Source: Fusobacterium varium (GTDB lineage: Bacteria; Fusobacteriota; Fusobacteriia; Fusobacteriales; Fusobacteriaceae). Taken from it: a stretch of DNA of 64,000 bases. Below the pieces are notes generated by a model that saw nothing but the letters and a program-made list of their open reading frames with translations, had not been told where the DNA came from and ran no database searches. How positions within the stretch are numbered: position 1 is the first letter of the stretch; the number at the start of each line of letters is the position of its first letter. The stretch is taken from positions 1,860,001 to 1,924,000 of the forward strand of contig AP017968.1 of NCBI GenBank assembly GCA_002356455.1, in the 5' to 3' direction. Made by a program: the position numbers and the translations under genes. Of the stretch, positions 38,639-41,408 are shown piece after piece.

Positions 38639-38677
38639 TGGACTTGAAATTATAAAAAATTTCAGGCCCATTTTTTT
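38639..38677 (+). terminator. nagB terminator
   Basis: TGGACTTGAAAT and ATTTCAGGCCCA form a 12-base stem with one mismatch and one wobble, followed by seven T residues. Confidence 0.85.
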
Positions 38678-38787
38678 ATTTCTTAGGAAATTATAATTTG
38701 ATAAATTTGTTAAAAAAATAAAAAATGTTAATTATTTTGTATTCATATTAGATATATTAATTGAATAAGATTAAAATTGACAGCACA

Positions 38788-38814
38788 AAAAAGCTGATTG
38801 TTAATCAGCTTTTT
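38788..38814 (-). terminator. hairpin at the 3' end of the transposase
   Basis: Perfect 12-base stem AAAAAGCTGATT with AATCAGCTTTTT and a 3-base loop, overlapping the transposase stop. It can act as terminator and as the IS 3' end structure. Confidence 0.75.
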
Positions 38815-40021
38815 AGCGATATTCTTTCCAGCAAATGGAGCCTGTATGTATATTAAAATATGATATTTTTTTAACTTTCATTCTGGTATTACATTTAAAA
38901 CAATAAAAAGGATTTACTCCAAAAGTTTTCCATATTTCAAGTTGATAAAAAGTAAAATTGGAATATTTAGAGACATATTTTCTCATGAATTTCATGATGT
39001 TTTTAAGTTCTGATTTAATATTTCTAGAATAGATTCCAAAGCGCCTAATCATTTTGAAATGTTTAGGGGGAATGTGAATAATTAATTTGGAAAGAAATGT
39101 TTCCGCATCTAAAGTAAGTTCAATTCTTTGTTTATCATCAGTAAGACTTTCATAATAGAAAGTAACCTTATTATCATAGAAATCAATAATTTTATATTCT
39201 GCGATAGGAGCTCTTGATAGATATCTGCCAATATATTTAATTGCATGAATATTATTATTTAAATCATTTTTTGCAACATTGAAAAAGAATCTTGTATTTT
39301 TGCGATAAAGGTAGTTAGCAGCAGCATAAGCTTTAGCTTTAATTTCAGGCTTGTCATAATTTCCAGATTTAACAATATCAATAACCATTTTTTTCCATTG
39401 TCCAGCAATGGAATTGACATGAAAATATTTTTTTTCAAGAAATTGGTAGTTTTTATTGAATCCACCTAAAGTAACAATAGCATGAATATGAGGATTCCAT
39501 TTAAGATCGCGTCCAAAGGTATGAATAACAGTAATCAATCCATAATGAATGATATCTGAGTTAGTAAAGTATTTAGAGGAATATTTTGAAATTTTATGAA
39601 TTCTTTGATTTTTTGCTTTAATGTTATGAAATTGATATTTAAAAACATCATTAACAGCATAAGCAAGCTTAGTTAAAAGGTCTCTATCATAGAAGAAAAA
39701 CATTCTAAGTTCTTCAGGAATAGTAAAAAGGACACTTCTATGTTTAACATCAATAAGAGAAGTGGAAGTTTTTTCAGTTCAAACAGCAGAATAACGTTTA
39801 CCGCAGGAAGGACAAAATCTAGATTTACAAGTAACTTTAATTTTATGCGCCTCATGACAATTAGGGCATTGAAGAGAGAGAAAAGATTTATCAATAGAAC
39901 AAGCTAAGAATTTTTGAATAGTCTGTTTAACATCCTCAAAATGTTCATTTTTAAAATATTTCTTGATTTTACCTAAAAGATTTGTTATATTGATTTTAGA
40001 GATAATATGTTTGATTTGCAT
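38813..40021 (-). pseudogene. IS91-type transposase interrupted by an in-frame TGA
   Basis: Read in one frame, the sequence encodes an N-terminal zinc-binding domain (LQCPNCHEAHKIKVTCKSRF then CPSCGKRYSAV) and, after a single TGA at about 39779-39781, a Y2-type HUH transposase with the HUH motif in LKWNPHIHAIVTLGG, the tyrosine region and a C-terminal FYCFKCNTRM Cys pair. No frameshift is needed: both parts share the frame. TGA could replace a TGG Trp. Downstream of the stop the reading could resume only at an internal Met, which would lose the zinc finger. The element is therefore probably inactive unless the stop is read through. Confidence 0.85.
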
Positions 40022-40032
40022 GAATGTCTCCT

Positions 40033-40065
40033 TTGTATAATTAGGGTGGTAACTATATTATACAA
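40033..40065. repeat. inverted repeat upstream of the transposase
   Basis: TTGTATAAT (40033-40041) and ATTATACAA (40057-40065) are perfect arms around 15 bases, just upstream of the transposase ribosome binding site. It could be an operator or an IS end feature. Confidence 0.6.
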
Positions 40066-40072
40066 AAAAGAG

Positions 40073-40115
40073 AGCTGAGTAAAACATTTTTTTAAATGTT
40101 ACTCAGCTTTTTTTA
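40073..40115. terminator. hairpin between the IS and the encapsulin operon
   Basis: AGCTGAGTAA, ACATTT and their complements form a long stem, with T runs on both strands. It lies between divergent genes, where no terminator is needed for either, so it may be an element end. Confidence 0.7.
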
Positions 40116-40201
40116 TTTTTTTAAAGGAATTCTCTCCAGACTGTTGAATAATAATATATAAGAGTTTATTGGTAATGTAATATAAATTGGAGGTAAGAAT
40201 T

Positions 40202-40561
40202 ATGGTAGAAGCTATGAAAGCAATGCAGGAGAGCATGAAAACATTAAGCAACAACACAAAAGACATAACAAGAGCAATTGAAAGTCTTAGAGAAGAATTG
40301 GATGCAGTGGATGTATACAATCAAAGAGCAGAACTTGCTACTGATGAAGAGTTAAGAAAACTTATGATACACAATAGAAATGAGGAAATAGAACATGCTG
40401 CTATGATAATTGAGTGGTTAAGAAGAACTATTCCTGAGTTTGATCATGAATTAAAAGATTATCTATTTACAGAAGGATCATTAGAAGATATTGAAGCTCA
40501 AGCAACTTCTGGAGATGGGGCACAATCATCTTCTTCATTAAAAATAGGAAACTTAAAATAA
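40202..40561 (+). CDS. encapsulated ferritin-like protein (EncFtn)
   Basis: A 119-residue encapsulin cargo ferritin. It aligns with Rhodospirillum rubrum EncFtn (from memory) through REELDAVDVYNQRAE, then HNRNEEIEHAAMIIEWLRR and LKDYLFTEGS. The ferroxidase ligands corresponding to Glu32, Glu62 and His65 are present. Glu34 of the entry site is Asp here and Trp38 is Val. The C-terminus carries the encapsulin targeting peptide SSLKIGNLK after a flexible Gly/Ser/Gln linker. GGAGG precedes the ATG at 40202; the upstream in-frame start lacks it. It would oxidise ferrous iron inside the shell encoded 17 bases downstream. Confidence 0.93.
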   Translation: MVEAMKAMQESMKTLSNNTKDITRAIESLREELDAVDVYNQRAELATDEELRKLMIHNRNEEIEHAAMIIEWLRRTIPEFDHELKDYLFTEGSLEDIEAQATSGDGAQSSSSLKIGNLK

Positions 40562-40577
40562 TCAGGAGGTAATATAT

Positions 40578-41363
40578 ATGGACTTTTTAAAAAGAGAATT
40601 AGCACCTATAACAGCTAACGGGTGGAAAGAAATAGAAGAAAGAGCAACTGCAGTATTGTCAAAAGAATTATCAGCTAGAAAATTTGTAAGAGTGACAGGG
40701 CCATTAGGAAGAGAAGTAACATCTATAACTACTGGAAGAATGGATGTAAAAACTAAAGATGATATTAAATATGGAGTATATAAAGTACAGCCACTTACTG
40801 AATCTAGAATATGCTTCCCTTTAAGCAGATGGGAATTAGATAATATTGAAAGAGGAGCAAAGGACGTAGACTATAGTTCTTTAGATGAAGGAGTAAGAAA
40901 AGCAGCAAGATTTGAAGAAGAAGCGATATTCAAAGGATTAGAAGAAGGTCAGATAGAAGGAATATACAAATCGAGCAGTTATGATACTTTGGATTTTGGA
41001 AAAACTGCTGATGAAACTTTAAAAGCTATCTTTGAAGGAATTCTAAAATTAGATGCAGCTTTTGCTAAAAAACCTTATGTATTAGTAGTAAGCAACGAAA
41101 AATGGTACTACTTGAATACAATAGTAAAAGAATATTCATTACCTGAAAAATTAGAAAAAATATTAGGACAAAAAATAATAGTAAGTAAATCGATAGATGG
41201 AGCTATACTTCTTCCATTCGATGATGAAAATATCGAATTAATAATTGGTGAAGATTATGCATTAGGATATCAAAATCACAATGAAAGTGTTGTAGAATTA
41301 TTTATAACTGAAAGTTTTACATTCAGAGTTTTAGACCCAGCATTAATTGTATTATTCAAATAA
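40578..41363 (+). CDS. encapsulin shell protein, family 1
   Basis: A 261-residue HK97-fold shell protein of the linocin M18/encapsulin family that self-assembles into a protein nanocompartment. Characteristic segments are FLKRELAPITANGWKEIEE at the N-terminus, ARKFVRVTGPLG, the SRWELDNIERGAKDVD region of the E-loop/P-domain, AARFEEEAIFKG and the C-terminal FTFRVLDPALIVLF. AGGAGG precedes the ATG. It follows the EncFtn cargo gene and a strong terminator follows, giving a two-gene iron-storage operon. Confidence 0.95.
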   Translation: MDFLKRELAPITANGWKEIEERATAVLSKELSARKFVRVTGPLGREVTSITTGRMDVKTKDDIKYGVYKVQPLTESRICFPLSRWELDNIERGAKDVDYSSLDEGVRKAARFEEEAIFKGLEEGQIEGIYKSSSYDTLDFGKTADETLKAIFEGILKLDAAFAKKPYVLVVSNEKWYYLNTIVKEYSLPEKLEKILGQKIIVSKSIDGAILLPFDDENIELIIGEDYALGYQNHNESVVELFITESFTFRVLDPALIVLFK

Positions 41364-41369
41364 TAGATT

Positions 41370-41408
41370 AGAGCCAGAATAGAAATATTCTGGTTCTTTT
41401 ATTTTTTG
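41370..41408 (+). terminator. encapsulin operon terminator
   Basis: AGAGCCAGAATA (41370-41381) and TATTCTGGTTCT (41386-41397) form a 12-base stem with one G-U type wobble and a 4-base loop, followed by TTTTATTTTTT. Confidence 0.92.

What the first reader, a model, noticed from the sequence alone, without database searches (positions are those of the whole stretch)
40202..41363. Encapsulin nanocompartment with encapsulated ferritin
A 119-residue EncFtn with conserved ferroxidase residues and the C-terminal targeting peptide SSLKIGNLK is followed 17 bases later by a family 1 encapsulin shell gene and a terminator. This is a complete two-gene iron-storage compartment in an anaerobe without classical ferritin nearby.
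Basis: partly seen in the sequence, partly recalled or inferred. Interest (0 to 1): 0.7.

Follow-up and report, generated by a model that had tools for sequence, protein, structure and literature searches.

The report
Ordinary ferritin-loaded encapsulin gene pair
This is a normal two-gene protein nanocage for oxidising and storing iron, of a well-known type, inherited within the anaerobic bacterial family Fusobacteriaceae and probably carrying a flavin on its shell as the Thermotoga one does.

Summary
Window 40202-40561 encodes a 119-aa encapsulated ferritin (PF22277, 123.5 bits; TIGR04535, 141 bits, cut-off 125). After 16 nt (not 17), 40578-41363 encodes a 261-aa family 1 encapsulin shell (PF04454, 238 bits; NF041155, 238 bits, cut-off 100), then a terminator at 41370-41397. 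Ferroxidase residues E32, Y39, E62 and H65 are invariant in relatives. The C-terminal targeting peptide is as conserved as the catalytic core; the linker before it is not. Both genes are under strong purifying selection. Cargo and shell occur in the same 25 of 61 Fusobacteriaceae genomes; each genus forms one clade and several share one chromosomal site, so the pair is old and vertically inherited with losses. The genome has no FtnA/Bfr ferritin but has Dps, two rubrerythrins and a hydrogenase-rubrerythrin fusion. All shells of the family keep the tryptophan (W85 here; T. maritima W87/W90) that stacks flavin, as in other anaerobes. New member of a known kind. Nearby and unrelated: an IS91-family element with at least 50 copies, every one with TGA in place of a conserved Trp codon.

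The parts
40144..40201 (+). putative promoter and leader of the encFtn-enc operon, with GGAGG ribosome-binding site; block nearly identical in the four congeners that have the pair
   Evidence: alignment of four upstream regions; exact promoter not shown
40202..40561 (+). encFtn: encapsulated ferritin cargo, 119 aa
   Evidence: PF22277 123.5 bits, TIGR04535 141.2 bits (cut-off 125); PDB relatives 3k6c, 33bf, 7oe2, 5n5f, 5da5
40295..40396 (+). span with the codons of the ferroxidase residues E32 (40295), Y39 (40316), E62 (40385), H65 (40394), Rru-EncFtn numbering; H57xxxE61E62xE64H65 motif intact
   Evidence: invariant in 15 non-redundant family members; motif as defined in PMC11202242
40532..40558 (+). 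C-terminal cargo-loading (targeting) peptide SSLKIGNLK, residues 111-119
   Evidence: mean column entropy 1.08 bits against 2.27 in the preceding linker and 1.04 in the core; resembles published consensus DGSLGIGSLKG (PMC7925596)
40578..41363 (+). enc: family 1 encapsulin shell protein, 261 aa, HK97 fold by homology
   Evidence: PF04454 238 bits, NF041155 238 bits (cut-off 100); T. maritima shell 3dkt E 6.5e-53 over full length
40830..40832 (+). codon of shell W85, aligned with T. maritima W87 (=W90 in another numbering), the flavin-stacking tryptophan
   Evidence: alignment; invariant in 26 family shells; function from PMC8086157 and PMC8610991
41370..41397 (+). intrinsic terminator-like hairpin followed by TTTTATTTTTT, closing the two-gene operon
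   Evidence: a hairpin and T tract also follow enc in congeners

Best explanation
A two-gene operon makes a family 1 encapsulin shell loaded with EncFtn. EncFtn should form a ring-like decamer of two-helix subunits whose subunit interfaces hold di-iron ferroxidase centres (E32, E62, H65, with Y39). Its C-terminal SSLKIGNLK tail binds the inner face of the shell. Fe2+ enters through shell pores, is oxidised at the ferroxidase centre, and the Fe3+ mineral is held inside the shell. This lowers free ferrous iron and its toxicity when this anaerobe meets oxygen or peroxide, and gives an iron reserve. W85 of the shell most likely binds a flavin on the outside of the shell as in T. maritima; its role there is unknown. 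Shown here: the sequence families, residues, tail conservation, pairing, selection, inheritance and the flavin tryptophan. Inferred from characterised relatives: assembly, loading, ferroxidase activity, flavin binding and the physiological role.
For: Profiles for cargo and shell far over curated cut-offs. Solved EncFtn and encapsulin relatives, with full-length alignment to the T. maritima shell. E32, Y39, H57, E61, E62, E64, H65 invariant in 15 non-redundant relatives. Targeting tail conserved like the core (1.08 against 1.04 bits entropy) while the linker is free (2.27 bits). dN/dS between congeners 0.00-0.02 for encFtn and 0.05-0.11 for the shell. EncFtn and encapsulin occur in exactly the same 25 of 61 family genomes, adjacent in all 26 loci, gap 2-33 nt. 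Genus clades each monophyletic in the shell tree; shared position between nagB(-nagA) and xer-rsuA in genera g1 and g13, with one side of it in g2 and g8.
Against: No experiment. Residue 34 (inner entry site) is Asp and residue 38 Val rather than the Glu and Trp of Rru-EncFtn; Asp34 occurs in known EncFtns (PMC11202242) and position 38 is variable in the family, so this is weak evidence only. Published T. maritima assays found no effect of the flavin on iron uptake or release (PMC8610991), so the flavin's part in the mechanism is open.
Confidence: 0.95

Rival explanations
1. The two genes are kept mainly for oxygen/peroxide defence rather than iron storage: the ferroxidase consumes O2 or H2O2 with Fe2+, working with rubrerythrins and Dps, and any mineral is a by-product.
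For: In its genus the pair goes with Dps: the four genomes that have it also have a Dps match, and of the eight that lack it only one (G019) has one. The genome has two rubrerythrins and a hydrogenase-rubredoxin-rubrerythrin fusion, the oxidative-stress set of an anaerobe.
Against: A shell is needed to hold mineral for EncFtn and would be of no obvious use for pure peroxide removal (inference from PMC8346489). No FtnA/Bfr exists in the genome to do the storing.
Confidence: 0.3
2. The cassette is a recent horizontally acquired or IS-borne passenger of marginal function.
For: An IS91-family element ends only 85 bp upstream and only 4 of 12 congeners have the pair.
Against: The element is absent at this site in the three other congeners that have the pair; the site beside nagB/nagA and xer-rsuA is shared across genera; each genus forms one clade; purifying selection is strong.
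Confidence: 0.03

Closest known systems
Thermotoga maritima encapsulin with ferritin-like cargo (3dkt, 7kq5; flavoprotein shell, PMC8610991, PMC8086157)
   Same: Shell aligns over its full length (E 6.5e-53) and keeps the flavin-stacking tryptophan; ferritin-like cargo with a C-terminal tail; anaerobic host.
   Different: Low-GC Fusobacteriaceae host; cargo tail SSLKIGNLK differs from the T. maritima GGDLGIRK; flavin binding not shown here.
Rhodospirillum rubrum EncFtn-encapsulin (Rru_A0973, 5da5, 33bf; PMC5012862)
   Same: EncFtn cargo with the same ferroxidase residues and HxxxEExEH motif; family 1 shell.
   Different: Positions 34 (E to D) and 38 (W to V) of the inner entry site; different targeting tail; its shell is a more distant match (about 4e-34 for the shell of the same PDB entries) than T. 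maritima's.
Haliangium ochraceum EncFtn-encapsulin (7oe2, 7odw; PMC8791618)
   Same: FLP with C-terminal targeting peptide in a family 1 shell; cargo matches at 1.4e-24.
   Different: Aerobic myxobacterium; shell more distant (1.6e-38 against 6.5e-53).

Membership tests
Encapsulated ferritin (EncFtn, TIGR04535 / PF22277) | score above the curated family cut-off | tested here: met
   141.2 bits against 125 (TIGR04535); 123.5 against 27 (PF22277)
Encapsulated ferritin (EncFtn, TIGR04535 / PF22277) | ferroxidase residues E32, E62, H65 and Y39 | tested here: met
   present and invariant in the family alignment; residue roles from PMC11202242
Encapsulated ferritin (EncFtn, TIGR04535 / PF22277) | C-terminal targeting peptide after a flexible linker | tested here: met
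   tail conserved, linker not; resembles published consensus
Encapsulated ferritin (EncFtn, TIGR04535 / PF22277) | ring decamer with ferroxidase activity | not testable with these tools
   inferred from solved relatives
Family 1 encapsulin shell | score above the curated cut-off, HK97-type shell over full length | tested here: met
   NF041155 238.4 bits against 100, positions 1-260 of 261; T. maritima shell full length
Family 1 encapsulin shell | adjacent cargo gene | tested here: met
   gap 16 nt here; adjacent in all 26 family loci
Family 1 encapsulin shell | self-assembles and loads the cargo | not testable with these tools
   needs expression and electron microscopy
Flavoprotein subgroup of FLP encapsulins (T. 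maritima type) | tryptophan at T. maritima position 87/90 | tested here: met
   W85 here, invariant in 26 shells of 25 genomes
Flavoprotein subgroup of FLP encapsulins (T. maritima type) | bound flavin in the purified particle | not testable with these tools
   needs a spectrum of purified shells
IMEF iron-mineralising encapsulin (Firmicutes) | four-helix IMEF cargo, often with an associated ferredoxin gene | tested here: not met
   cargo is EncFtn by profile; next gene is a phzF isomerase beyond a terminator

The most novel reading that the evidence does not exclude
The Fusobacteriaceae shells form a whole family of flavin-binding encapsulins kept at an ancestral chromosomal site, in some genera without any other ferritin, and whose cargo in several genera has altered the canonical inner iron-entry site (E34/W38 replaced by D/V, Q/D, I/D or I/R). 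They would be natural tests of what the shell flavin and the entry site do under anaerobic conditions.
Probability: 0.35. Interest if true: 0.4.

Novelty: new member of a known kind. Interest (0 to 1): 0.2.

Why it matters
It is a textbook EncFtn encapsulin, so it adds host range rather than a principle. Its use is comparative: no paper in the open library was found that describes an encapsulin in Fusobacteria, the family offers carriers and non-carriers within one genus, and all its shells carry the flavin tryptophan whose role is unsolved.

Tried and rejected
Rfam scan of the window: no match. Linking the downstream phzF gene to the operon: rejected, because a terminator lies between, it has its own ribosome-binding site, and other genera have different neighbours. 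Reading the upstream TTG (40187) as the start: rejected, because the ribosome-binding site lies within that extension and the extension is missing in the closest congener. The idea that the pair replaces ferritin: only partly true, because genera g8, g9 and g13 have both, and congeners without the pair also lack ferritin. In-frame stops reported in Dps of genus g3 turned out to be ordinary terminal stops in the one case read (L104).

Full report
Observation. The window carries, on the + strand, encFtn at 40202-40561 and enc at 40578-41363. Each start codon follows a good ribosome-binding site. A terminator-like hairpin lies at 41370-41397. Pfam and NCBIfam give a clear answer for both: EncFtn-like PF22277 (123.5 bits) and TIGR04535 (141.2 bits, cut-off 125); Linocin_M18 PF04454 (238.1 bits) and NF041155 family 1 encapsulin (238.4 bits, cut-off 100). 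Solved relatives are EncFtns (3k6c, 33bf, 7oe2, 5n5f, 5da5) and the T. maritima encapsulin over its full length at 6.5e-53.

Residues. In Rru-EncFtn numbering, which this protein follows without gaps in the core, E32, Y39, H57, E61, E62, E64 and H65 are present and invariant in 15 non-redundant family members; these are the ferroxidase residues and the HxxxEExEH motif described in PMC11202242. The inner entry site differs: D34 and V38 here, Q34/D38 in most of genus g3, I34 in two others (L026, L027). PMC11202242 reports that Asp34 occurs in known EncFtns and that removal of the site raises activity. The tail SSLKIGNLK is conserved like the catalytic core (entropy 1.08 against 1.04 bits) while the linker is not (2.27 bits). 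It resembles the published consensus DGSLGIGSLKG (PMC7925596). Genus g5 departs from it (SDxIFLK) and also has the most divergent shell (38% identity).

Selection and inheritance. Among four congeners dN/dS (NG86) is 0.00-0.02 for encFtn and 0.05-0.11 for enc. EncFtn and encapsulin occur in the same 25 of 61 Fusobacteriaceae genomes and are adjacent in all 26 EncFtn loci; G052 has one further weak, partial shell-like match. In the shell tree each genus with several members is one clade with full support. In the own genus the order is rpiR-nagB-encFtn-enc-phzF-xer in four genomes; in congeners without the pair where the stretch is covered it is rpiR-nagB-nagA-xer-rsuA. Genus g13 has nagB-nagA-encFtn-enc-xer-rsuA, g2 has nagB-nagA-encFtn-enc, and g8 has encFtn-enc-xer-rsuA. 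This shared site argues for an old, vertically kept locus with losses; genera g3, g5 and g11 have it elsewhere.

Genome context. PF00210 finds four matches in the 4.12 Mb genome: a Dps (L028; best NCBIfam model is Dps, below its cut-off), two rubrerythrins (L029, L030) and a hydrogenase-rubredoxin-rubrerythrin fusion (L031). Ferritin-type proteins score 131-156 bits in sister genera and are absent from the own genus. In the own genus the four carriers also have a Dps match, and among the eight non-carriers only G019 has one. So EncFtn is the only ferritin-type mineral store apart from Dps, but not the only iron or oxidant protein.

Flavin. Shell W85 aligns with T. maritima W87 (W90 in the other paper's numbering) and is invariant in all 26 aligned shells of the family. 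Published work shows that this residue stacks an FMN and that its mutation abolishes flavin binding. Trp occurs at this place in only 10% of the Pfam family and 35% of FLP-loaded encapsulins, the latter almost all from anaerobes (PMC8086157, PMC8610991). Flavin binding here is thus likely but inferred. Assays in T. maritima found no effect on iron uptake or release, so no role is claimed.

Verdict. The system is a new member of a known kind. No paper was found in the open library that describes an encapsulin in Fusobacteria, but FLP encapsulins were already counted in 23 bacterial phyla (PMC8346489), so presence in this family is not surprising.

In passing. The IS91-family element at 38671-40117, 85 bp upstream of encFtn, has at least 50 near-identical copies in this genome, some head to tail. 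All 50 have TGA at codon 81 of the transposase, where relatives have TGG for a conserved Trp, and no TGG copy was found. Congener G026 has about thirteen near-identical copies, each with one TGA, and a diverged G027 copy (80% identity) has the same TGA. Elements only about 50% identical in genera g4 (G016) and g6 (G037) carry a single TGA at other conserved Trp codons (211/209 and 175), in several copies of equal score in G037, beside uninterrupted copies of a further type. Three separate UGA-for-Trp changes in spreading elements suggest UGA read-through as a brake on transposition, transposase made in two pieces, or supply in trans; this was not tested further. One literature search found nothing on point.

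Noticed in passing
window 38671-40117 (transposase 38813-40021, - strand); L134-L143: IS91-family element with at least 50 copies (97-100% identical) in the genome, all with an in-frame TGA at transposase codon 81 in place of a conserved Trp (TGG) and none found with TGG. Related elements about 50% identical in two other genera (G016, G037) have a single TGA at two other conserved Trp codons, in G037 in many copies. This looks like recurrent UGA-for-Trp read-through limiting transposition, or elements moved in trans.
   Followed up: partly
own genome, e.g. G000:C1:3354804-3357689, 2372083-2374970, 997796-1000688: Several IS91-family copies stand head to tail with about 14 bp overlap of the matches, as expected from rolling-circle transposition.
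   Followed up: no
L007 and L008 (G033, G030, genus g5): EncFtn tails there end SDDIFLK / SDNIFLK rather than SLxIGxLK, together with the most divergent shells (38% identity): possible co-evolution of targeting peptide and shell groove.
   Followed up: no
L002 66-1202 (G043): Upstream of an intact EncFtn, a 378-aa frame begins with an EncFtn-like N-terminus (35% identity, E 5e-6) running into a sugar-transporter binding-protein-like sequence: perhaps a decayed duplicate or an assembly join.
   Followed up: no
L031 1189-3171, - strand (own genome): A 660-aa fusion of an iron hydrogenase-like domain, rubredoxin and rubrerythrin; several genomes of the family have 680-700 aa frames with the same ferritin-like match.
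   Followed up: no
L010 and L012 (G026 and window genome): encFtn differs by 10 of 357 bases (dS 0.16, protein identical) while enc next to it differs by 79 of 783 (dS 0.56): a likely local recombination tract over the cargo gene.
   Followed up: no
L074, L076-L081: EncFtn relatives of Gammaproteobacteria, Methanolobus, Patescibacteria, Alphaproteobacteria and GN15 are 92-130 aa, lack an evident targeting tail and have no encapsulin match within the fetched flanks (shell-less s-FLP type).
   Followed up: partly
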